From Lophium mytilinum (taxonomy: Eukaryota; Ascomycota; Dothideomycetes; Mytilinidiales; Mytilinidiaceae), in contig MU004191.1 of assembly GCA_010093605.1 (NCBI GenBank), positions 365,832 through 429,831 of the forward strand: a stretch of DNA of 64,000 nt, in the 5' to 3' direction. Made by a program: the position numbers and the translations under genes. The notes under the pieces were generated by a model. The model was given only the letters and a program-made list of their open reading frames with translations. It was not told the origin of the DNA and made no database searches. Shown here in pieces: positions 1-64,000 of the stretch (its first letter is position 1; every line of letters starts with the position of its first letter).

Positions 1-3000
1 TCTATAACCTAGGTAGATTAGGCAGTTTTAGAAGGTTAGATAGAGAAGGTAGATAGCTATATTTATAAGAACTATAAAGTAGTTATTAACTATAATAATT
101 ACCTATAATACTAGATTATCTATAATTAAGAATTATCTACGCAGCCTACGCGTAAATTTTATATAAGAAGTAGGTAAACTTTTATAAAGTAGTGTAAAGC
201 CTATAGAGTAGTAAAATGCGTAGTCTTCTAGAAGATTATGTAAGTAACTAGTATTCTCCGCGCGTTTCTTAATTTAGAAATTTCTAATAATAAGTATTTA
301 TATAATACCTAGTAATTACTAGAGAAAGATACTATCTATATATAGCCTAAGTACTTTAAACTAGTACTTATAGATAAAAAAGTAGAAGCTCTAGTATATA
401 CTAAAGAATAACTATATAAACCTAGTAATATTATTATAGGCCTAGCTAACTTTACTAATAATTTAGTAGCTATTAGTCTCTACACTATATTAAAAGATAA
501 TTAATAGAAATTCTTTAAAAAGATAGACTGCACTTCTATAACTTATAAAGAACTTAAGGCGCTTATATCTTAGAAATATTAGGGCTTTCTTAATATATAG
601 AATCTAAAGAAAGCTAATAAACTACTACTATATTATAAGGCTAAAGATAGTATAGATATTAATTACTATATTAATATTAAACCTAGTACTAAAGCTCTAG
701 CTTAAAAGGTATATAGCCTCTTATATAATAAAATATTAGTAGTTAAAACCTTTATTAATAAAATATATAGGAAAAGCTATATTAGAAAAAGTAATAGCTA
801 ATATACTGCCCCCGTTATTATTATTTATAAGCTAGAAGAAGGCCTTTATATTTATATAGACTATTAAGGTCTTAATACTATTATAATTAAGGCCTATAAC
901 ATTTCTCTAGCTATAAAGGATACTTTAGCCTTACTTAAGTATACCTAATACTATACTAAGTTTAATATTATTACTACCTTTAATGCTATTTAAATATAAG
1001 AGGGCGATAAAAAGTACACCGCGTTCCTTATAAGATATAGCTTATTTAAATTTACTATTCTACTCTTTAGCTTATATAATACCCTAGCAATATTTTAAGC
1101 CTTTATTAATAATATTCTCTTAAAATACTTAAATAATTTCTATATAGCTTATTTTAATAATATTCTTATTTTTAGTAAGATATTAGAGAAATATATAGGC
1201 TATATTAAGAAAGTCCTCTAGTAACTCTATAAGGCTAGTCTCTTTCTTAATATTACTAAGTATAAATTCTATAAGTAGAAAGTTAAGTATCTAGGCGTTA
1301 TTATTAGTATTAATAGCCTTAAGATGGACCTAGCTAAAGTTAAAACTATAGTTAACTAGCTATAACTATAAAACCTCTATAATATATAGGCTTTTCTAGG
1401 CTTTTATAACTTCTACTAGTAATTTATTATTACCTATTCTAATATTATAGAACCCCTTATAAGACTTACTAGAGCTAAGGTCTATAAGTAGTTTACCTTT
1501 CTATAGTAGAAAGGGAGCTTAGAAGACTTTTTATTTAAATAAATAAAATAAGCGTTTATTAATACTTCTTAGATAGCTTATTTTAATCTAAATCTAGAGA
1601 TATAGGTAGAATATAATATATCTAATACTATTATAGCTACTATACTATCTTAAATATAGACTAATAGTATTCTCCGCCCTATTACATTTATATTCTATTA
1701 AATAAGCATAGCCTAACTTAACTATTAGATTTATAATAAAGAACTTCTAGTAATTATCCGCGCCTTTAAGAAATAGTATATAGAACTTACTAGCTATAAA
1801 TATAGTAATCTAATTAAAGTTTTTTTAGATTACTATACTCTATAATACTTTATAGAAACTAAGCAGCTTAACTAATAATAGGCTAGATAGGCTAAGTTTC
1901 TTTCTAAATTTAACTTCTAAATTACTTACTAACTAGGCAAGAATAATAGTAAGGCTAATCTACTAACTAAATGCCTAGGTAATATACTAGATTAAGATAA
2001 TAAACGCTATAAAATCTAATAATAAATAATCTTAAAGAACTATAACCTAGAACTAGAAATATATTACGCTATTAAACTAGCCTATATTATAACTAATAGC
2101 GTTACCTATAATATAGTTTCCCTCTTAGTAATATTATATAACTTTAGTAAAGTAGAACTTAATTAGGGGGAGTTTTAAAGTAACCTTAATAAAGAACTAT
2201 AAAAGTTACTAAGGTAGGGAAAGTTATAGAGTAACCCTGCTAATAGTACTATAGAGTAAGATATAGTAGATTATATATAAGAAGCCCTCTATAATAATAC
2301 TATTAGTAACGCTATTAAAGATACTATTAGAGCTAAGCTACGCCGCCTGCCTACTAATATAGTTAAAAATTATAGTATTAAGCTTAAGCTTTATAACTAT
2401 ATAATTTATAATAGCCTTATCTTTATTTAGAAGAACTACTTATATATTTCTACTAAAGAAGAACTTTAATTAGCTATTATTAAAAGTCTATATAAACCTC
2501 CCCTAGTTAGCTATAGTAGAACTATATCTATATATAACCGGGTTTTAATATATTACTTTTAGCTATAGATAACTAATAATATTAACTAGTATATTAAGGC
2601 CTGCTAGCTATATAATTATATTAAATATGTATATAATATAAAGTAAGGCTTTCTTAAACTACTACTAATTTCTAAAAGATATTAAACTAATCTTATAGTT
2701 AACTTTATTAGCCTACTATCTAAATATATATAATTTAGAAGAGACTATTAATATATTATAGTAGTTATAGATAGACTTTCTAAAATATATAAATTTATTT
2801 CTATAGTTACTATAGACGCTAAGAAAGTAGCCTAAGTCTTTCTTAAATAGGTATAGCGCACTAAAGAATATCTATAGTCTATTATTTCTAACTAAGAAAT
2901 GTAATTTATATTAACCTTCTAGTCTTACCTATATAAGTATATTAGTATAAAGCTAAAGCTCTCTACCTTCTTTTATCTAAAAATAGATAGATAAATAGAA

Positions 3001-4600
3001 ATTACTAATATAGGCCTAAAGTAATACCTTAGAGCGTATATTAACTACTAGTAGAATAACTAGTATAATTTTCTTACTATTACTAAATTTAAAGCTAACT
3101 TATTAAGAAACGCCTTTACTAGAGTAGCTCCTTTTATAGCTACTAAGAGCTATATTTCTAGCGCGGGCACTAAACTAGCTATATAATTACCTAAGAATAT
3201 AAATATACTAACTATCTATCTTACTAAGCTAGTAGATAAGCTTATTAATAAACTAGATAAGCTATATATATTTCTCCGCACGGAAATTAAATAGGCCTAG
3301 GCTAAGTAAAAGAAATATACTAACGCTAGATAATAACCCGCCTATATATATTATCTAGGCGATTAAGTTATACTTAATAGACGGTTTATTAAAATAAACC
3401 GCCTAAATAAGAAACTTAACTTTAAAAAGCTAGGCCCCTTTAAGATTCTAGAAAGCTATAAAAACAGTAGCGTATATAAGCTTAAGCTACCTAAGAATAT
3501 AGAGAATCTATACTCTATCTTCTATTCTTAGCTACTTTACCTAGCTAATATAGTCCCTATAAAAAAATAGTATAATTCTAAGCCTCTACCTATATAAATA
3601 ATACTAATATATTAGAAAGATAATACTAAAAAGGTTATAGATAGCTACCTAGATAGAAGACGCCTTAATTCTACTACTAGTAAAAGAGGCATACTATAAT
3701 ATAAAATTAAATTTATTAGATAGAATAATAAGCCCTAATAGAATAACTATAACTATACTAATAGCTATCTATACCTAGTTATAAATTTCTACTACTATTA
3801 CCTAAGAAAACCTGGCCCTTATTTATTATTCTAACTACTATTAGACTAGAAGCTAACCTTAGCTACTATTCTTACTACTATAGACCTCTATATAACTAAT
3901 ATTATAGAAGCTATATAACTTAATTACTAGACTAGTAGTTAAATTAATTTATTAAGAAGGCCTAACTATAGATATATATAATAATTAATATAATATACTA
4001 ATATAGATTATTATAAGTATCTAGTAGTAGGTTAGTAGCTATAAAGGCTATATAGCTTCTTATAGCCCCGTTATAGCTAGCTCTAGTCTAGATAAATAAG
4101 GCTACTTATAGTAATACTACGTATAGTAATACTATATATAGTAATACTACAGGTAATAATACTATAAAGCTTATAAAAGAAAGACTATACTAAAAAATAG
4201 TAAGGCTATAGAAGACTATATAAAAATAAAAAAAATAAGTAATTCTCTATAAATTAATTTATTTCCTTTATTTACTTATAGCTAAAATATAATTAGGTAC
4301 TTTCTTTAATAGATATTTAAGCGGTTATAGATACTCTAGTATAGAAAGAACTCTCTCTTATAAAAGCTTTAATTAGGGGGCTTCTTTAGAGGGGGGAGAT
4401 ATATTATAGCTATATAATTATATATAATATATAACTAGAGATTATATAATAGAGGCTCTATAAAACGGGCGAATATTACTCCGCCCTTTAGGTTATTATA
4501 ACGTCTATTCTAGAAACCTCTTTCTCTCTTATATTTATCTTTTATTAATATTAATACTATTTAATTTAATAATTCTAACGTTTTAACCTTAAGCTCTAAT
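1..4600 (+). mobile_element. RIP-degenerated Ty3/Gypsy LTR retrotransposon (5' end outside window)
   Basis: Although riddled with stops, the + strand still reads as a Gypsy polyprotein in the usual order. Reverse transcriptase lies at about 810-1250 (relics of the PV..KK, DYRGLN, aFNqIRI and active-site YLDDIL blocks), RNase H at about 1590-1990 (relics of the YDKELLAI and LEYF blocks), integrase at about 2640-3200, then a small-barrel and chromodomain-like tail to about 3760. A polypurine tract at about 4390-4398 is followed by what should be the 3' LTR. Most stops sit where Gln or Trp codons are expected, and CA/TG dinucleotides are almost absent, which is the mark of RIP. The element cannot be functional. 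The right LTR boundary is approximate and the gag end is cut by the window edge. Confidence 0.85.
4390..4398 (+). other. polypurine tract of the Gypsy element
   Basis: An A followed by a G run and GA sits just 5' of a stretch beginning TATTATAGC at 4402. In intact fungal Gypsy elements a G-rich tract like this primes plus-strand synthesis and abuts an LTR beginning TG; here TG appears as TA, as RIP would produce. Confidence 0.5.
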
Positions 4601-6400
4601 ATATACCTAGTAAATTAGCGTATAGATTTTCTTATAGAAAGTAGAAGGCTTTACTATTTACCCGGCCTATATATAATAAATAGCTACTAGTACTCTTCTT
4701 AGTATACTACTTTAATATTAGCCTAAAATATATAGATTTTAACAGTTTTTAATACTAATTTTAATATACTAGCAGCCTTATCTATCTATATAATATATAA
4801 CTAGTTAGCTATTATTTAATAAGTGTGCGCCTAAATAAAGGTAAGGTAATCTTAGTAGTATTTTATATTAAGATAGGGCTTAAATATAGCTATATAGTAA
4901 GTATAGCCCTTCTAATTAAGTATTTATTTAATAGTTTTTACGCTAGTAGTAATTCTAGTATAGAAGCTAAGCTTTATATAGGTAATAGATTAAGCCTATA
5001 AATAGCTAGTAAGAAAGTCTACTAGATACTTTCTAGCTAGAGTTCTATAAATCTTTCTATTTTAATAGTAGCTAAATTAACTAAATATCTATAGCTTCTA
5101 GTAGATATAATATATAGTAGATAGTATAGTACTAAGTATAGTAGAAATTTACTAGTAGAAAAGTACTATATAGTTATAGAGAGTCTTTATAAAATACTAG
5201 AGCTTATATAGAATAGCTATAGGCTAAGAATTATACTACTAGTAGAATAAATTAAGGTTTTTATAAGTCTATTACTATTTCTCTATATTATAGATTATAT
5301 ATTATATAGCTCTATATATATTAGTAGTCTTATACTACTACTACTAGTAAATATAGTATAGAAATACTACTAAGCTATCTTAACTATAGTATACTAGCGG
5401 CGTAAAAGAGCTCTAATTAGATAGAATTAAGATAATTAAGGCTATATATATAGTAAGGCGAAAGCTATACTATATTTAAATAGTTAGTAATAGAGATAGT
5501 AATATAAATAGAAGTATACTACTATAGTATATTAAAGAAGAAGAAATTAATATTTAAGAAGAAATTTAAGTATACTAGAAAGATAAATTATAGCCTAGAG
5601 AAGATATAAAGTACTTAGAGAAGGTATAAAAGAAATTAAAGGCTATAAATATAGATATACTACTACTAGATATATAGCTAGAGCTACTAGAGCTTAATAT
5701 ATAGCTAAAAGCTTCTATTATATTCTCTAAGAAAGAGAGAGTAGATAGCTAGTTCTATAGTATTTAAAAAAGATCTAAAAGAGAGCTAGGCCTAAAGTAG
5801 GTACTATAGTACCCCTATTTATTATAGAAGATAAATAGGTAGTAAGGCCTAAGAGAGAGTATAGTATTAAGTAGTAAAATAAGTAGAAAAAATAGATATA
5901 TTTAAGATTATTAATAATTAATACTAATTATCTATAATTTAGTAGTAAAAGTAGTAATTTTAGATAGATATATATATAGTATAATAGCTATATTATATAT
6001 ATATATATTATTTAATAGCTTAGCTATAAGCTTAGCTATATTTTTAGCTAATTTCTTTCTTTTTTACTATTTTTTATCTTTCTTATAATTCTTCTTTTTC
6101 TCTATAACTACTACTATTATTAAATCTATTAAAATAATACCCGGATATCTATTTCCCAGCCTTCTAGCATATTTTTAGGGTCTACTAATATACTCTACGC
6201 AATAATTAAGGTTAGGCGGGCGCTTAGCCGTAAGGAAACTTAGGTACTAATTTAGTTCTTAGAAAAATACTACTAAAAAGAGGGGGATAGCTAGCCTATA
6301 TACGCCTCTATTATAATTATATAGAACTAGCTAATATTAAGCTTTAATATTGCTAAGAGCCGCGAGGCCCGAATTAGCTACTCCTTAGCTACTCTAGGCG
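4600..6400. repeat. RIP-mutated AT-rich DNA, not assignable
   Basis: The same CA/TG-depleted, TA-rich composition continues without an open frame of note. I see no recognisable protein relic on either strand. The boundary with normal DNA is near 6,390-6,420, where CA and TG dinucleotides reappear abruptly. Confidence 0.7.
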
Positions 6401-14295: not shown

Positions 14296-16097
14296 ATGAT
14301 CACAGCCGCGTCACTGAAGAGGTGGTTCACCATCAAGAAGAGTCTGTTCTATATCTTGTTTTGGGGTTTTCACTGGAGCATGTTCGCATATGGATGGTAT
14401 GTTTGCCCTTCTCTGTTCACTCTGGTCCCATTGCTAACCTTCAAAGGTGGAAACAAGCCGGTGATGAGCGACTAGCGGCACTAAATGGACTCAAATTCTC
14501 CGTGTGGATTTCTCGAGGAGCAGGATTGGTGTTGTCGATAGATGTGTTGTTGATTCTTCTGCCCATGTGCAGGAATATCCTCAGGTGGATTCGACCAAAG
14601 GCTAGGTGGTTGCCATTGGACGAGTCTCAATGGTTCCATCGACAAGTCGCCTACGCTTTGCTTTTCTTCACAATTGTTCATACCGCTGCTCATTACGTCA
14701 AGTAAGTTCTCATCCCTTGTTCTTCAGGTTCTGGGCTGACTCTAGTAGCTTCTTCAATGTTGAGAAGACACAAGTCCGCCCAGAGACGGCAGTGCAGATT
14801 CATTACACCCAAGCGGGTGGTATTACAGGTCATATCATGCTTCTCTGCATGATGCTAATGTACACCACCGCTCACCATAGGATACGCCAGCAATCTTTCG
14901 AGACTTTCTGGTATACTCATCATCTTTTCATCCCATTCCTGTTGGGCATGTACACTCACGCCACTGGCTGCTTCGTGCGTGATAGCGTTGAGCCGTTCTC
15001 ACCCTTCGCCGGTGCCGGTTTCTGGAACCATTGCATTGGCTACGAGGGATGACGATGGGAGCTTGTTGGCGGCGGATTGTACCTCATCGAACGTCTCTAC
15101 CGCGAGATTCGTGCTAGGAGAGAGACTCAGATCGTCAAGGTCGTCCGTCATCCTTATGGTAAGTACATGATATCACATACTATTGCCATAGCTAACTCTC
15201 CCAGACGCTGTGGAAATCCAGTTTACCAAACCATCAATGAAGTACAAGCCAGGACAATGGCTATTCCTGAATTGTCCCGACGTGTCACACAACCAGTGGC
15301 ATCCGTTCACCATCACCTCATGTCCCTTCGACCCGTACGTCAGTGTGCACGTACGACAGGTCGGGGACTTCACCCGAGCACTCGCTGATTCACTTGGAGC
15401 CGGCCAATCGCAATCGAAGCTCTATGACGAGCTAGATCCCATGGGAATGTACGAAGTTGCGCTGCAGCATGGCCAGAAGATGCCAAGACTACGCATCGAC
15501 GGCCCCTACGGTGCTCCCGCCGAGGATGTCTTCGAGAACGAAATTGCCGTGCTAATAGGAACTGGTATCGGCGTCACGCCCTGGGCCGCCATCTTGAAGA
15601 ACATCTGGCATCTCCGCCTCTCTCCCAACCCGCCTAAGCGTCTCCGCCGTGTCGAGTTCATCTGGGTCTGCAAGGACACCAGCTCGTTCGAATGGTTCCA
15701 AGCGCTGCTCTCTTCCCTCGAAGCACAGTCGATGGGCTCGCCCAATGGCGGTGCCGAGGGTGCTGACTTCCTCCGTATCCACACCTATCTCACCCAACGC
15801 ATGGACGTCAACACTGCTAACAACATCGTGCTCAACTCCGTCGGTACCGATAAGGATCCGCTAACAGAGCTGAGCAGCCGGACCAACTTCGGCCGGCCGA
15901 ACTTCTCGCGTCTGCTCACTGGCATGCGCGACGGCATCATGGACCGCAGCTACATGAACGGGCTCGAGAGCTCGCTGCGGACAGACGTCGGAGTCTACTT
16001 CTGCGGGCCCAGCGTTGCGGCGCGGGATATCAAGAAGGCGTGTAAAACGGCGACGTGTCAGGAGGTCAACTTCAAGTTCTGGAAGGAGCATTTCTAA
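14296..16097 (+). pseudogene. noxA: NADPH oxidase NoxA/NOX1, interrupted by one in-frame TGA
   Basis: Exons 14296-14396, 14447-14701, 14749-15158 and 15205-16097 give 553 codons, normal NoxA length. The enzyme moves electrons from cytosolic NADPH across the membrane to make superoxide. Haem ligands are intact: His98/His112 (spacing 14) and His176/His189 (spacing 13). So are the FAD motif HPFTITS, the NADPH motif GTGIGVTP, a YFCGPS motif and the C-terminal KEHF. Codon 220 (15050-15052) is TGA, directly after IGYEG and before RW, where NoxA proteins have Trp (GYESWR). Frame and similarity continue perfectly on both sides, no GT donor is available to splice it out, and no other lesion is visible. 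It is therefore a one-base pseudogene, a recoded or edited gene, or a sequence error. As written, the product would be 219 residues without FAD/NADPH domains. Confidence 0.9.
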
Positions 16098-17238
16098 GCT
16101 CCCAACCCTACTTAGGTTGTACTTTTCCCTTGTGTCGCTCAGTGTACGAATGGGGTTCTCTAGCAAGAAAGGATGAGGTGATGCTAACAACGGCAGTCAA
16201 TACCAGGGCAAGGCAAGGCAAGGCAAAGGCGTTTGATCTCGTTTTCTCCAGCTACATAGATTCTTGTAGGCTGCTGTATGCTACGTTATGTGTATTTCTC
16301 GAGAGTCTTTCAGCGAAGAGCAGCGTTTTAGCGTGAGTCTCTATGAGTAGGATGCATCACGGAGGGGGAATTGTATCGATGGGGAAACTCTATTGAATAT
16401 GAATATCTTTCTGCAACAATTCTTTTTGGTTGATAAGGTGGTTGTCCGCATTGAGGCATGCTCTTGGAGCTTCGTTCGAGAATGAGGCTGACAGGCGGTT
16501 GCTGGCGCAGAGGATGTGTCGGGTTTGATTGGATTGGTAATTGGTATCACCATTTTTATCTGTCACCTTTCGCAATCCTCGGCTCGAAATTGGTTGCATA
16601 ATGCCTCAATGTGCGCCTGAGAGATCTCTTCTCTCGTTCACGAAATTGGGCTGCTCTCCAGCCTGAGCAGTAGCTGTGCTGGGGTGAGCACATCCTAAGC
16701 TGATACTAAGGTGGAATTGTAACCCCAGCCCTGGGCGCTACATAAGAAGTCACCCTGCATCGGACGGCCTACAGGCCTGCAGCTTTGTCAATTCTAGTTT
16801 CCGGGCCCTGGGTCTTAAGTAAACTTGCTCTCAGATATGTTACGGGCAGTTCTACAAACAGCCAAGGATCTTTACTCTGTAAACGTCAGTAAAAAAAGGA
16901 AGGTTGTCTCCTTAGATCACGTAATGTGACTTTTGGGGTGTAGCTTCACGAACACTAGATGTTCTATAGAAGACCGCTACAAACGGGCATGATTTTCCAT
17001 TTGTCTGCCTTGCGAAAAGAACAAATATGGATTGGGAAAAAGCGGTATCAGCGCACTCCGCCTGCATTAGGGCTAAGTCTCAGCCTTGCGTCCTACCTCC
17101 ATCCTCACTCTTTCCTACCTCTCCCCTTTCCATTATACAACAACTCTCTACTAGCCATTCCATTTTCCGCTTCTTATGAGCAGTTTCCACAGCTCCCTTT
17201 GCATCGCTACATGCGTCGCCCCCCATCTCGGCTAGGCT
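16098..17238. other. intergenic, nothing recognised
   Basis: Apart from a short GGCAA-type iteration near 16205-16227 I see nothing. The last 150 bases before the next ATG are pyrimidine-rich, like a fungal promoter. Confidence 0.55.
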
Positions 17239-18875
17239 ATGGAAGTTGCTGGCCTCGCGCTCGGTGTGGCCGGCCTTGCTAGGCTCTTCTCCGCCTGTGC
17301 TAACGGTTTCGCTCTCATCCGCCGAGGCCGAGCGTTAGGTCACGATGTCCGGATCCTCGAAGCCAAGTTCAGTAATCAAGAGCTGAGACTCAGAGCTTGG
17401 GGACGGGCGTGTGGGTTTGCTGAAGACGGCGAGGCTGGGAGGCGTGGAGTCGAAGGCGCTGAAACGAACAAGAACTATGATGAGCGACTCGATGTGCCGG
17501 AGTTGAGAGCGAATGTTGCGGAGACGCTGGAGTGTATTACGACGTTGCTTTACGATGGGGCTGGGTTGCGGGGCCGGTACGGGTTGAAACCTTTCCCAGT
17601 TGATGAGAATAACGACGCGTCGTCGCCGACTGCTGATAGTGCGGATGGGGTAGAGAAACGGAAGAATTTCAATCGACTTAGTTTTCTGCATAGTAGCAGG
17701 GCCAACAAGGAAAAGAGCAGCTCGTTTCGTTCGTCAGCGGCGTGGGCGATCGAGGACAGGTCCAAGTTTGCCGAGCTGGTTTCTCTTCTCAAGGACTTGG
17801 TTGATGATTTGGAGGATATTACTCGAGCCACAGACATCCCGAGACGGCAGCTGGTGTTCATCGGGTACGAAATAGAGGCAATAACGGATGTGGAAACTCT
17901 AGAGGAGATGGAAATGACTGGAGAAGGAGAACATGACACGGTTTCGGACGCTGCGAGCTTGAGGCTTGAGGTTATCTCAGGAGCTGCTTCTAGTGTGCGA
18001 GCATCGATCGGATCCAGGAGTCTACGGTCGTTCAGAACGCTGCAGTCGTATGAGACTGCGAGAAGTCGGTTCTCTGATCCAAGCAGTCGGTCCTCCGTTG
18101 CCAGCACTGCGGACAGAAATACAAGAGTGGATCTCAAATGTGCTAAGTAAGACTGGTAGACTCGAAATCAACATTGGAGAATGCTTGCTGATTTAGTCCA
18201 GAGTACTCGTCACAGGACCACTAGAGTCATACAAAACGCACTTACTCCAGAATTTCATTTCTACCTCTATCCTCAGACATTATAAAAGAGCTGTCTTTGA
18301 GAGGTATCAGGCGGCATCGCCAGCATTCCTGTAAGTGTATACCGTCGACTCCGGGTCTATAGAATACACTTACGGCTTGGACATGATCACATAATCTGAC
18401 CGTGGTGAAATGTAGTCTTAATGGTCACATCGTGGTACCGTTCAGATATGACGATCATGAGATAATGTTTTCTCTTTGGGACACAGTTGGAGAGGAAAAT
18501 TATGATAGACGACAGCTTTACTCAAATGCTGACGTCGTCTTAATATGTAATTCCGCGTCCGTAACCGGAAGAAATGAAATGCGACAAACATGGGCACCTG
18601 AGGCGAAATCCAGCAACACCCCTTACATGCTTGTAAACATAAAGCCGGGTGATGGTGATAATGGCGTGTTTACGAATGTGGCAGAAGAAACAGAAGAAGG
18701 TGCTCATGTGTCCACGTCGGAGATACTCGGGTTAAATCTTGGTGATGAATTTGGGGCGCTTTCTTACCTTCAATGCAGCTTGTCCGATGAGAACTCCGTG
18801 ACCCAAGTTTTTGAACGGGTCAGCACTCCGATAACCTTCCATTTGAGAAGACATTTAACTAAATCCGCTCTCTGA
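17239..18875 (+). CDS. HeLo domain fused to a degenerate Rho-type GTPase domain
   Basis: Exons 17239-18146, 18202-18330 and 18416-18875 give 498 residues. Intron 1 (55 nt) has a CTGAT branch and intron 2 (85 nt) a CTGAC branch; both junctions keep frame. Residues 1 to about 215 are a HeLo (prion-inhibition and propagation) domain opening MEVAGLALGVAGLARLFSAC, related to the HET-s and NLR cell-death effector domain. Residues about 215-302 are a Ser-rich linker. From Lys303 a small-GTPase fold follows: P-loop position 308-315 reads GPLESYKT (last Gly replaced by Tyr), switch II reads WDTVGEENYDRR from 367 (catalytic Gln replaced by Glu), the Rho-like WAPE block is kept, the NKxD motif is lost (NIKPGD), and CSL stands for the SA/SK box. 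There is no CAAX box. Probably a pseudoGTPase acting as sensor or switch for HeLo; that role is inference. Confidence 0.75.
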
Positions 18876-58307: not shown

Positions 58308-59798
58308 TCAGGTCGTTTTCTGTTTCTTATTTGAGGAAGATGGGCCGGGAGCGTCGTCGTTGTTAGGGCGCTTGGAGCCTTCCTTTGCGCTTCCTGGGAG
58401 GTTTTCCTTTGCTCCTTGGGCGGCGTTCGTAGTTGGACCCGGTTTGATTGCGATGTACATGACCTTATAATTAGCTTCGGAGTCCGCTGGCGTACGGTTT
58501 GAATTGGTTATGTCTATAGGAGCGCCACGTGCTATGGTTGCACGGTCCGGATAACCTGGAGCAACACGTACCAGAGGTTGAGTGTCGGCGTGAGCGGTAG
58601 CTACAGAGAACGAGCATGTCTCCGGATAGTCGTCGGTTCTTCCCGCGGTCTCGTTAGGTCTAACTGGCATTAGAGCTGTCCAATGTCCTAATCGCGTCCA
58701 ATTTATCAGATGAATCTGTCCCCGAGGTGGATCGTTGTCTCCGTATATCCGAACTCCCCAATTCATTGATTTACCGGGTATATCATGGGTTGGAACATGT
58801 GCAAAGATTTGCACACCGTAAGCGTCTGCGATGAGTTGTAAGGCATGATCCGTGCCCCACGCTTCCCCAAAGAGTTGCTCCACGATATCACTATCCTCAA
58901 CTAGAGCCTGGTACAATCGCGTTCTCAGATAGTTGACCGAGTTACGTCTCGTGTAGTCCCTGCCGAAATTTTCCACGTGCCGATTCCCACGCCCGAGACG
59001 CCCGTAATTGAAAACGACCGCAGCATCGTACCGGACACGTTGCCATAGTTCTGCATTCCCCCAGTATGCATGCGCAAATGCAAGCCATAGACATTCGCCA
59101 CTGCCTCCTGCGTCATGTTGGCGAAATTCACGGTTTCGAGTGCCCCCTGGCCCCATAAACTCCGTCATTATTCCTTGATAACGAGACCAACCTCTCTCTA
59201 GCGCCCATAGATCGGGTTTCAAATCAGCTCTCCATTCTGTTGTGCGTTCCCAATATCTTCCCGGGTCGTTTGAAATGAGGACATATTTTTTCTCCCAGCC
59301 TTCGCACTCGCCCTGGGCCGTGTCGAAAAGTCCTTCGATGAAACCGTACCAGCTGTCGCAGTCGTTGTTTCTCTTTGCAACATCGAAAGATTCTTGGAGC
59401 GCAGTTAAGTCCCCTTCGTGGAATGTTCCATCTGTTTCGATAAAGCGGCGGATAGCTAATCCATTGTTCACAGGAGGATACCTCGTCGACCTCCTGTTCG
59501 CGTTGAGATAGTCCAGGAGCGGTGTGATGTAGACCTCTCGGGTAGCGTCTAGGTTGTTGTAATGTTCTTCGATGAATCCGACCAGGTGGCGCTTCCGATA
59601 TTTAATTTTCTTGCCGTCTGGTCCTCTTTCCGGTGGTTCGATTCCGCATCTTTTCAGTTCACTTTCGAGCTCGGGGACGGTCAGTTCGTCGAAACTGGCA
59701 ACATCCCATCTGGGCTCATTGGGCAACCGAGGTACGCCTCGACTGACAAGGTTGTCTGGCGATGGCCTTTTGGCCTTTTTAGTCCTTTTAGGAGGCAT
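58308..59798 (-). CDS. SAP-like domain plus OTU-type cysteine protease
   Basis: An intronless gene of 496 residues, starting at MPPKRTKKAKRP (59798), which gives an N-terminal nuclear-localisation cluster; an upstream in-frame ATG at 59897 is less likely. Residues about 36-80 (LTVPELESELKRCGI...KYRKRHLVGFIEEHY) fit a SAP-type DNA-binding helix pair. Residues about 229-376 carry an OTU deubiquitinase layout: Asp229 and Cys236 in DAGGSGECLW, WGTDHALQLIADAYGVQIF, then His372 in LGHWTAL. The tail is disordered and basic (NKKQKTT). OTU enzymes cut ubiquitin or related chains; a nuclear target is inferred from the SAP and NLS features. OTU domains also occur in mobile elements, and this gene lies within 4 kb of the RIP block, so element origin should be considered. 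Confidence 0.7.
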   Translation of the reverse strand: MPPKRTKKAKRPSPDNLVSRGVPRLPNEPRWDVASFDELTVPELESELKRCGIEPPERGPDGKKIKYRKRHLVGFIEEHYNNLDATREVYITPLLDYLNANRRSTRYPPVNNGLAIRRFIETDGTFHEGDLTALQESFDVAKRNNDCDSWYGFIEGLFDTAQGECEGWEKKYVLISNDPGRYWERTTEWRADLKPDLWALERGWSRYQGIMTEFMGPGGTRNREFRQHDAGGSGECLWLAFAHAYWGNAELWQRVRYDAAVVFNYGRLGRGNRHVENFGRDYTRRNSVNYLRTRLYQALVEDSDIVEQLFGEAWGTDHALQLIADAYGVQIFAHVPTHDIPGKSMNWGVRIYGDNDPPRGQIHLINWTRLGHWTALMPVRPNETAGRTDDYPETCSFSVATAHADTQPLVRVAPGYPDRATIARGAPIDITNSNRTPADSEANYKVMYIAIKPGPTTNAAQGAKENLPGSAKEGSKRPNNDDAPGPSSSNKKQKTT

Positions 59799-61147
59799 TC
59801 CGTCGAAGAGATAGAGCCGTGTCTTCGTGTATGGCTGTTTCCGATGTAGGACTCTCTGTCTAGAATGGTTTGAAATCGTGAACAGGCAATGAAGCAAGAA
59901 AAACGTGAGGATTGTTTAGACAAGGAATGACGGCGAAAGGTCGTTATGAGGCATGATCATGTTTGTTATACGTTCTCTCTTGTTCGTGAGTTTATAGCTA
60001 TTTGCGTTGATCTCCATTGTTATTGTGAGGACAATGGCAACAAAGGCTATAAGAGGAGGCTACAATTTCAATTGTGCATCCCAGGTTTAGCGCGAGAGTT
60101 GGTGAAGGCTTGGAGCAAACGGCGGCATGCGGCAGCCTTCACGCGTCAATACACTTCACTCACCTTACCGTCACAGCATTTTCGAGGTCATTCAAGGTGT
60201 TGTTCTCTTATTTCGAGACGGCGGCTTGGAATCGGAAACAATATAATTAGATAAGATGATTTAGGAAATGAATGAACGTCAAATTTGATGGTGACATCAA
60301 ACTTAGACTATATTTGAAGCACCGTAGTCACCTTTGTTCCCTGCAGTCTCAGCTGTTTGCCAGGGCTGATCTTGAACTGGTGATGAAGGAAACGTGGCTT
60401 TCCGTTACTGCAATTGTTCTCGCTATTGTTCTCGACGTTGTATGAGAGAACAAAAGGAAAAAGGAGTAGTGGGCACCTGAATAAGACAAAGAAAATCGGA
60501 CAATGGCATAGTTACTTCTCTTTTTGACCAGAAATCTACCGGTCTTTTGGTCTGAATGTCATCGTTCCTATGGCCACATTTCCTTGTCTGATTGTCGTGG
60601 AACCGGCTCCCGAGGTTTCGCGCGCCAAGCGCAGGCTCACTTACTACCCCTATGAGCGTGCCGAGAGATTCGAAGCATCAATTTATGGTGGTTGTATTTT
60701 TTGGCGATGAAGTTCAGTGAGGCGGGAGATGGCGGCCCTCAAGAGACGTAGAAGACGAGCGGACTCGTACGGGCCAACGAGCTTTCGCATTAACCTCATT
60801 GGGCGCACCATAAAGCTTTCCTCCAATGCCCTTGACGTTTGACTTCCAGTATTCATCTGATGGACGAGTATCTATGAGCATAGTGTCAAAGTCTTGTAAT
60901 TAGTAGTCCAGAAGGAGAGGAACATAGCGGAGTAGGCTTACTGCTCGCAGCTCGAAATGTCATATCACTTGAAGAAATGGTCTGCGGCAGAGCGATCAAA
61001 GCCACAAGTATGTACTTCGTACCATCAAGTAGCCAACTATGAACATGAAGTAGACTTTTACAATGAGAAAATTCGCCTAACGATAGCCAAATCACACACA
61101 GTCCACTCTAACGACTCCATGATCTAATGCCCACAGTCCTCGGCTTC
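59799..61147. other. intergenic, nothing recognised
   Basis: Between the start of the OTU gene and the end of the DUF4360-type gene. No supported gene; composition is normal. Confidence 0.5.
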
Positions 61148-61841: not shown

Positions 61842-62221
61842 GTTTGAATCACCTTGGAAAGTATATGAAGTAAATAGGGTTTTGGAGGAGGATGTAAGTT
61901 CGTTGATGGGAGAAGTTCCTTCTTTAAACACTGGAAATCCAATTAGGTTCACCCATTGTTACTTAACCTTAGTATCACTTTGCGACTGGCATCGAGACCG
62001 GCCTAAGGGCTTTGGGAAGGTGATGCTCTTTCCGAAGAATGCAGTATGCTAATTGCTTCGCTGTGATTTATAGCACGGTCTATCGGCCCGTCCATTTCGG
62101 GGAACAGATCGGCAGCATTGAGCTGTTGGGGAAAGTTGGGTAATTTGATTTTGATGATAGTATCGTCCCAGGGACAGTTGCTTCGCTAATGCTGAAATCC
62201 GGGGAGATCGTGTTGAAATTG
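61842..62221. other. intergenic up to the RIP boundary
   Basis: Upstream of the secreted-protein gene. Normal composition ends abruptly near 62,222, just after GGTCACGTGACGTAGG. Confidence 0.6.
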
Positions 62222-64000
62222 GTCACGTGACGTAGGTAGTACATAAGTAATATAATTAATTACATAGTAAGCTATCTATAGGTGGAGCTATAGCTATATA
62301 GCTAGAGCTATAGGGGGCTAGAAAGATTACTATCTAGCTATCTATTTTCTAGCACCTTATACTAAATTTTAATACTCCCTCTTAATTAAGAGTATAAGAA
62401 AATAGTAGCGCCTATATATAGCCTAAATTACAGCCTATTTTAAGCTCTAGCCTTAGTAAAACTCTTTAAAACCTTATTAGAAAAGAAGGGAAAAAGCGCT
62501 AGGTAGTATATAGAAAAGAATACTAGATAGTATAAAGAAAAGAGCGCTAATATAAGAAAGCTATAGACCTTTATAAAAAGATATAAAGAGAAACCTATTT
62601 AGTAAGTTATTTAAAGAGAGATATTAAAGAGAAACCTTAAGAGATATTAAGAGAAACCTTAAGAGATATTAAAAGAAATCTTAAGAGATATTAAAAAGAA
62701 CCTATTTAGTAAGCTAAATAAAACTAAAGAGAGCTAATTCTTTCTAATCTTCTATAGTATATACTCTATTAGATATATTAGCTATAGCTACTAGCTAGTA
62801 GAGAGTATTCTAGATATATTTTTCTTATCTAGAGAAGATCTAGCTACTACTATACTAGATAGTAGCTATTACTCTTTCTTTATTTACTATATTATAAAAG
62901 AAGCGCTAGGCTTTCTTTAGAACTTTTCTCTATCTCTTAATCTACCTATTATCTATATAGATAGGCTCTAGATTATAGTTATAAATAACTATAACCTTAC
63001 TAATATAGTTTATAGTAGTAATTACTACTATTCTCTAGTAGTACTATACTATATTCTTCTATTTACTAGCTCTTATACTAACCTAGAAGTCTATAGAAGT
63101 ACTAAAGTACTTAAGCTAGATCTTCTTTTACTAGTAGTTACTTTTCTAGAAGCTTCTAAAGGTTACCCTTTCTTAGTAGATAGCTCTAGCCTCTCTAGAG
63201 TCTTTACCTAGGGCTATTACTTCTCTAATAGCTTTTTTAACCTAGAAAGTTTTAATAATTCTATTCTTAAAGAAGATAATATTAGAAAAAATAAAAGAAA
63301 AGCTATATTTTACTTTAATATATTATAGAAACTCTATAAATTCTATAGAAGATAGCTAAGAAGTACTAGAAATATCTTTAAGTAGAATAGAGTAGATTTT
63401 ATCTACCTAGATAATATTATTAGAAGAGGCTCTAATAAGAACCTAAGTAAGTAAATTATTAAAGGCTTATCTTTATAGGCTTCTATACCTACTAGCTAGC
63501 TCTAGCCTAGGTAATTTAAACTAAGATTTATATAGTTAAAGAATAATATTTAAAAGTAAATTACTTAGTCTAGTATTAGTAGAATCTTCTATAATACTAG
63601 AATCTAAATCTTTAGAGTCTAGAATTTTAGAAACTATAATTCTTTTAGTACTATAGATAATACTAGTAGAGTTATAGATACTTAAAGAGAGTAAGTTTAT
63701 TAGATTCTAGAAAGTAACTAAGTTTAAGAGTAAATAGCTTAGTTTAATATTAGTAGAATTAAATAAGATTTTATTAGTATATATATTAGAGTTAGTAGTA
63801 TTAATATTAAAAGGAATTTTAGCGCTAGTAATACTAGAGCTAGAGTTATAGGTTATTAAAGGTAGTAATATTTTAGAGTTAGTATACTTTATCTATTTTA
63901 GGTATAGATTTCTTACCTTCTCTTTACTATACTACTTTAAAATTAGGCGGCCTAAATATTTATAATTAGGGCTTTTAGAATTAAGAGAAATTTTAGTTCT
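62222..64000. repeat. RIP-mutated AT-rich block, right edge of window
   Basis: TA-rich, with CA and TG almost missing, like the left block, and continuing past the window end. A short CTCCCTCTTAATTAAGAG near 62371 and iterated AAGAGATATTAAAAGAAA units at about 62625-62700 are visible. I could not identify protein relics; an inverted LTR element is possible. Confidence 0.75.
62625..62700 (+). repeat. short iterated units inside the RIP block
   Basis: Repeated blocks of the form GAAACCTTAAGAGATATTAA with small variations occur four to five times in a row. This is probably a decayed minisatellite or part of an element terminal region. Confidence 0.6.

What the first reader, a model, noticed from the sequence alone, without database searches (positions are those of the whole stretch)
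15050..15052. Single in-frame TGA at a conserved tryptophan in an otherwise intact noxA
Seen: codon 220 is TGA between GYEG and RW; haem, FAD and NADPH motifs and all splice sites are otherwise perfect, and no donor site allows the stop to be spliced out. Known: NoxA proteins have Trp here (GYESWR). Options are a very recent null mutation (one G to A change), a sequencing error, stop readthrough, or A-to-I mRNA editing, which in Fusarium and Neurospora repairs stops to Trp during sexual development, exactly where NoxA acts. Against editing: the edited A is preceded by G, whereas fungal editing prefers U before A. Against readthrough: the following CGA is not the efficient CUA context. If real and uncorrected, the strain should lack NoxA-dependent fusion and fruiting.
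Basis: partly seen in the sequence, partly recalled or inferred. Interest (0 to 1): 0.85.

Follow-up and report, generated by a model that had tools for sequence, protein, structure and literature searches.

The report
Fungal noxA gene cut by stop
The only noxA-type oxidase gene found in this fungal genome, a kind of gene that other fungi need for cell fusion and fruiting, carries one premature stop codon in an otherwise whole reading frame; most likely it is an ordinary recent loss-of-function allele, possibly favoured in culture, or else a base-call error, and signs of RNA editing or programmed readthrough are weak.

Summary
Confirmed: TGA at 15050-15052 lies in frame at codon 221 of a four-exon noxA-like gene (14296-16097), with Nox domains recognised on both sides. 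No second copy was found; the paralogue NoxB is open. Not shown by tools: that this position is a conserved Trp. RIP shaped the flanking AT-rich blocks, not this gene. Known fungal stop editing is disfavoured: G precedes the A, the A is not in a predicted hairpin loop, and three Ame1-family genes show no MV pair near the key site. Best reading: a real, recent nonsense allele, expected null. Precedent: fusion-deficient Neurospora 'cheaters' arise in culture by such lesions, one a W-to-stop in ham-8 (passages of PMC7862218). Main rival: a base-call error, untestable without reads. Ordinary in kind, moderately interesting as a test of the cheater idea.

The parts
15050..15052 (+). in-frame TGA, codon 221, in exon 3 of the noxA-like gene
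   Evidence: spliced translation
14296..14396 (+). exon 1 with start codon
14397..14446 (+). intron 1 (GTATGT...CTAAC...AAAG)
14447..14701 (+). exon 2
14702..14745 (+). intron 2 (GTAAGT...CTGAC...CTAG)
14746..15158 (+). exon 3; holds the stop, which ends 106 nt before the exon end
15159..15204 (+). intron 3 (GTAAGT...CTAAC...CCAG)
15205..16097 (+). exon 4 with the normal stop; the FAD domain match begins in exon 3, the NADPH domain lies in exon 4
14975..15061 (+). shortest frame-keeping cryptic intron over the stop (GTGCGT donor, GGAG acceptor, no CTRAY): judged unlikely
1..6200 (.). AT-rich block with strong RIP signature (composite index 1.60-1.69 in the three 2-kb bins of 1-6000)
62200..64000 (.). 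AT-rich block with RIP signature on the other side of the gene island (composite index 1.55 in bin 62001-64000)

Best explanation
A genuine, recent nonsense allele of the one noxA gene found in this genome. The product would end after 220 residues: it keeps the ferric-reductase-like membrane part with its histidines but loses the FAD and NADPH domains, so it cannot take electrons from NADPH and should be null (inferred). The stop ends 106 nt before an exon junction, so the mRNA may also be degraded by nonsense-mediated decay (recalled rule, inferred). The frame, the splice sites and the recognised domains are otherwise whole, which suggests a young loss (inferred). It may be a natural variant, or a fusion-deficient mutant that rose in frequency during clonal propagation, as shown for other fusion genes in Neurospora.
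For: One stop and no other lesion seen in 554 codons; Nox domains on both sides, with matches to NOX2 in both parts. One DNA-level copy; the other protein matches are NoxB and four weaker family members. NoxB is open over 565 aa. PB1 matches at four places have no stop inside the match; three of the frames look to me like NoxR (L018), Cdc24 (L017) and Bem1 (L019). No RIP signature in the gene. No plausible intron removes the stop. Precedent: in eight independent Neurospora lines the cheaters all had mutations in fusion genes, six in soft, one W277* in ham-8, one intronic in ham-5 (passages of PMC7862218); [quoted passage not shown] NOX-1 is essential for cell fusion and sexual differentiation in N. 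crassa (passages of PMC6702951).
Against: No reads, sister isolate or RNA were available, so a base-call error cannot be excluded. The term nox-1 has zero occurrences in the main text of both cheater papers. The organism and its culture history are unknown. Selection on the gene could not be measured without relatives.
Confidence: 0.6

Rival explanations
1. Consensus base-call error in the assembly: the gene is intact in the organism.
For: A single substitution in an otherwise whole gene is what an isolated error looks like; no read data were available.
Against: The assembly is contiguous (43,183,309 bases in 24 contigs). Of the other 24 stops with similar coding flanks in 264 kb none was shown to interrupt a recognised domain, but 6 were not followed and the control does not measure the error rate. 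Real high-impact variants do occur in fungal populations: 3.4% of affected genes in Phyllosticta ampelicida, which that paper calls few (passage of PMC12506662).
Confidence: 0.28
2. Sexual-stage A-to-I editing of the mRNA removes the stop, as in Fusarium and Neurospora.
For: NoxA acts in perithecium development in Fusarium (passages of PMC8928025); editing of stops to Trp is known; DUF726 (Ame1-family) matches lie at three places.
Against: Known premature-stop editing is of UAG, with U at -1 and a preference for hairpin loops (passages of PMC11156358); here G is at -1, and the A is in a bulge or internal loop in the 63- and 103-nt folds and paired in the 143-nt fold, never in a hairpin loop. 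The Ame1-Tad3 interaction arose in Sordariomycetes and depends on an MV pair (passages of PMC11087585); none of the three DUF726 genes has MV in the 60 residues before GxSxG, though I had no Ame1 sequence to align. The class of this fungus was not determined.
Confidence: 0.04
3. Programmed or leaky readthrough of UGA makes some full-length NoxA.
For: UGA followed by C is among the leakier contexts (recalled); the frame beyond the stop is whole.
Against: The next codon is CGA, not the CUA of the known strong motif (recalled); folds around the stop are no more stable than shuffles (z 0.79, -0.76, 0.17); no tRNA-Sec match, with 53 of 3,810 candidates scored.
Confidence: 0.04
4. A cryptic frame-keeping intron from the donor at 14975 is spliced out and removes the stop; ATGAC at the stop itself could serve as a weak branch point for 14975-15061.
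For: Good GTGCGT donor; 6 of 15 pairs of 40-300 nt keep the frame, among them 14975-15061 (87 nt, GAG) and 14975-15130 (156 nt, CAG).
Against: None of those 6 has CTRAY in its last 45 nt; the two pairs that do, including the one to intron 3's own acceptor, shift the frame. 8 of 8 introns of noxA and NoxB have CTRAY and none has G before AG. The 87-nt one would delete 29 codons, including six columns invariant between this gene and NoxB; the longer ones delete more.
Confidence: 0.02
5. RIP leaking from the neighbouring AT-rich block made the stop.
For: A strong RIP block ends about 8 kb upstream.
Against: noxA has TpA/ApT 0.60 and (CpA+TpG)/(ApC+GpT) 1.22, and the composite index of the full 2-kb bins between the blocks runs from -0.97 to 0.03; the base context at the stop is not the CpA context of RIP (sequence; rule recalled).
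Confidence: 0.01

Closest known systems
Fusion-deficient cheater mutants of Neurospora crassa (soft, ham-5, ham-8; PMC7862218, passages seen)
   Same: Loss-of-function lesion in a gene of the hyphal-fusion pathway; one published lesion is also a Trp-to-stop change (W277* in ham-8).
   Different: No nox gene is named there in the passages seen; here selection and culture history are unknown.
Premature-stop-correction genes of Fusarium graminearum (PUK1, AMD1 and others; PMC11156358, passages seen)
   Same: A stop inside an otherwise open frame, in a gene that acts in sexual development.
   Different: Those stops are UAG edited to UGG; this is UGA with G before the A and no predicted hairpin loop.
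Fungal NoxA / NOX-1 (Neurospora, Fusarium, Botrytis)
   Same: Domain make-up, one copy beside a NoxB, PB1 proteins present.
   Different: Carries an in-frame stop.

Membership tests
NADPH oxidase (Nox) | Ferric-reductase-like membrane domain, FAD domain and NADPH domain in one frame | tested here: inconclusive
   All three recognised in two pieces, but the frame is interrupted between the first and the other two
NADPH oxidase (Nox) | Histidines in the membrane part | tested here: met
   H98, H112, H116, H177, H178 and H190 shared with NoxB; their haem role is recalled
NoxA subfamily | Closer to NoxA than to NoxB; lacks the NoxB N-terminal extension | tested here: inconclusive
   NoxB has a 34-residue extension that this gene lacks; no NoxA of another species could be fetched, so the label rests on recall
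Premature-stop editing gene | UAG with U at -1 | tested here: not met
   TGA, G before the A; the rule is from passages
Premature-stop editing gene | Edited A in a hairpin loop (a preference) | tested here: not met
   Not in a hairpin loop in any of three folds
Premature-stop editing gene | Ame1 with the MV pair | tested here: inconclusive
   Three DUF726 genes, no MV in the 60 residues before GxSxG; no Ame1 sequence was aligned
RIP-inactivated gene | Depleted CpA/TpG, raised TpA | tested here: not met
   Indices 0.60 and 1.22
Programmed readthrough (UGA CUA type) | CUA after UGA | tested here: not met
   CGA follows; the motif is recalled
Fusion-deficient cheater allele | Loss of a fusion gene that rises in frequency in culture | not testable with these tools
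   No culture history, reads or sister isolate

The most novel reading that the evidence does not exclude
The sequenced isolate is a fusion-deficient cheater that arose in culture or in nature by losing noxA: a sign that NADPH oxidase genes, and not only soft and ham genes, are targets of this selection, and that reference genomes of fungi may come from such degenerated strains.
Probability: 0.15. Interest if true: 0.6.

Novelty: new member of a known kind. Interest (0 to 1): 0.33.

Why it matters
If the stop is real, the strain should lack NoxA-dependent fusion and fruiting, which would affect any study that uses it as a reference, and it offers a natural test of whether clonal propagation selects for loss of fusion genes. 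If it is a base-call error, it is a warning for annotation. If RNA showed correction of UGA, it would extend fungal stop editing to a context that the passages I saw do not describe.

Tried and rejected
Rejected: RIP; splicing around the stop; a second intact copy (one search found only the gene itself and a 67% NoxB stretch). Not supported: selenocysteine (53 of 3,810 candidates scored). A changed genetic code is unlikely: of 13 coding-like open frames of 300 codons or more, 3 end at TGA (a small sample, without homology).

Led nowhere: relatives of the C part in genome contigs and viral contigs (none confirmed); 5.8S rRNA for naming the organism (no match, 39 of 1,268 candidates scored); mating-type alpha box (no match, and nothing rang in the controls, so no conclusion); suppressor tRNA (42 tRNA matches, a lower bound; loci not cut, anticodons not read). 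The window itself gave no tRNA and no Rfam match.

Paper searches, all ten: 1 listed, not read; 4 listed; passages of PMC11087585 and PMC11156358 seen; 2; passages of PMC12506662 seen; 0; 5, none read; 5, none read; 28 hold the terms, 15 listed; passages of PMC6702951 and PMC8928025 seen; 14 and 2, none read; organism not identified; 14 hold the terms, 8 listed; passages of PMC7862218 and PMC10580951 seen. I met no published noxA nonsense allele in these, which is a narrow search.

Control: a first cut-off gave 0 hits and missed noxA too; I then set it at noxA's own level, after seeing that. Of the 24 other stops: 6 have a possible GTR-CTRAY intron, one of them read in sequence; 7 lie antisense to a better-scoring frame; 5 were scanned with Pfam as two pieces each without a match, one of these also read and left unresolved; 6 were not followed. 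The splice scan stopped at 160 nt and that at 120 nt; one search went to 300 nt and added frame-keeping pairs with CAG or AAG acceptors, none with CTRAY. An earlier count said the NOX2 alignment starts one residue after the stop; it is two.

Full report
The observation. The window is G000:C11:365832-429831 of an assembly of 43,183,309 bases in 24 contigs. A four-exon gene runs from ATG 14296 to its normal stop at 16095-16097; introns at 14397-14446, 14702-14745 and 15159-15204 give one frame of 554 codons with exactly one internal stop, TGA at 15050-15052, codon 221. Searched as two pieces, the part before the stop matches PF01794 (E 1e-15) and the part after it PF08022 (1.5e-23) and PF08030 (2.9e-20). 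The C part matches NOX2, the cytochrome b-245 heavy chain (best E 1.5e-58), and so does the N part (1.6e-21). The gene is therefore a Nox with a stop between the membrane part and the dehydrogenase part. The label NoxA rests on recall and on the presence of a separate NoxB on C3 with a longer N-terminus.

Is the position a conserved tryptophan? Not shown by tools. Counted back without gaps from the shared LYL, NOX2 and NoxB both have W at that place. But MAFFT puts the stop in a stretch that NoxB lacks, and phmmer's alignment to NOX2 begins two residues after the stop. No other NoxA could be fetched: genome contigs and viral contigs gave no confirmed relative.

Copy number and partners. A DNA search of the genome with the gene finds itself and a 235-base stretch of NoxB at 67%. 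A protein search with exon 4 finds the gene, NoxB in two pieces, and four weaker family members. NoxB splices to an open 565-residue protein. PB1 matches occur at four places, none with a stop inside the match; three of the frames look to me like NoxR, Cdc24 and Bem1. So the surrounding pathway looks present. NoxD/Pro41, the partner of NoxA, was not searched, because I had no sequence or family model for it.

Could the stop be avoided? Splicing: the only donor of good form within 300 nt before the stop is at 14975; 15 pairs of 40-300 nt from it cover the stop, 6 keep the frame, and none of the 6 has CTRAY in its last 45 nt; the two pairs with CTRAY shift the frame. The shortest frame-keeping one, 14975-15061, ends GAG. 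All eight introns of noxA and NoxB have CTRAY and none has G before the final AG. Four pairs with poorer donors, an HAG acceptor and 40-120 nt all shift the frame and lack CTRAY. Editing: in Fusarium and Neurospora it favours U before the A and hairpin loops, and premature-stop correction is of UAG (passages of PMC11156358); here G precedes the A, and the A is in no hairpin loop in folds of 63, 103 and 143 nt. The Ame1-Tad3 interaction depends on an MV pair, an innovation of Sordariomycetes (passages of PMC11087585); six DUF726 matches at three places exist here, and none of the three genes has MV in the 60 residues before GxSxG. I had no Ame1 sequence to align and do not know the class of this fungus. 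Readthrough: the codon after the stop is CGA, not CUA (motif recalled), and the folds are ordinary, z 0.79, -0.76 and 0.17.

What made it? The gene island (about 6.3 to 62.2 kb) lies between AT-rich blocks with an extreme RIP signature (composite index 1.55 to 1.69). noxA itself has none (0.60 minus 1.22), the full 2-kb bins between the blocks run from -0.97 to 0.03, and the base context at the stop is not CpA. An ordinary point mutation, or a base-call error, remains.

How unusual is it? In 264 kb (the window and 200 kb of the same contig), 657 of 20,302 stops in six frames have at least 60 open codons before and 30 after; 25 of these, noxA included, score at noxA's level, meaning upstream at least its score and downstream no more than 0.5 below. 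The cut-off was set after a stricter one gave no hits and missed noxA too. noxA's own scores are low, so the cut-off is loose. Of the other 24, 6 have a possible intron and 7 lie antisense to a better frame; 5 more, given to Pfam as two pieces each, matched nothing; 6 were not followed. So I found no second interrupted domain, but the control is coarse and does not measure the assembly's error rate.

Meaning. A product of 220 residues without FAD and NADPH domains should be inactive; the stop ends 106 nt before the exon end, so decay of the mRNA is also expected (recalled rule). In Neurospora NOX-1 is essential for cell fusion and sexual differentiation (passages of PMC6702951), and in Fusarium NoxA acts in perithecium development (passages of PMC8928025). 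[quoted passage not shown] The allele here would fit that kind of selection, but the term nox-1 does not occur in the main text of either paper and the history of this isolate is unknown; I give it 0.15.

Verdict. A real in-frame stop in the sequence as given; most likely a recent null allele (0.6), otherwise a base-call error (0.28). The exotic readings are not excluded, but each is at or below 0.04. Ordinary in kind, worth one PCR.

Noticed in passing
1-6200 and 62200-64000: AT-rich blocks (GC 0.24-0.28) with strong loss of CpA/TpG, sharply bounded against a normal gene island: strong RIP in this genome.
   Followed up: partly
17236-18150 (+): A HeLo-domain (PF14479, prion-inhibition and propagation) gene lies next to noxA; the family is linked to fungal incompatibility (recalled).
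   Followed up: no
58308-59915 (-): A 535-residue open frame with no Pfam match at E 0.001.
   Followed up: no
L010, L011, L012: DUF726 (Ame1-family) matches at three places; by ungapped count from GxSxG the key site reads AK, AV and SQ, neither MV nor KN. Two of the six matches have a stop inside, perhaps in introns.
   Followed up: partly
L026:5436-6344: A coding-like frame with a TAG, no GTR-CTRAY intron over it and no Pfam match on either side.
   Followed up: partly
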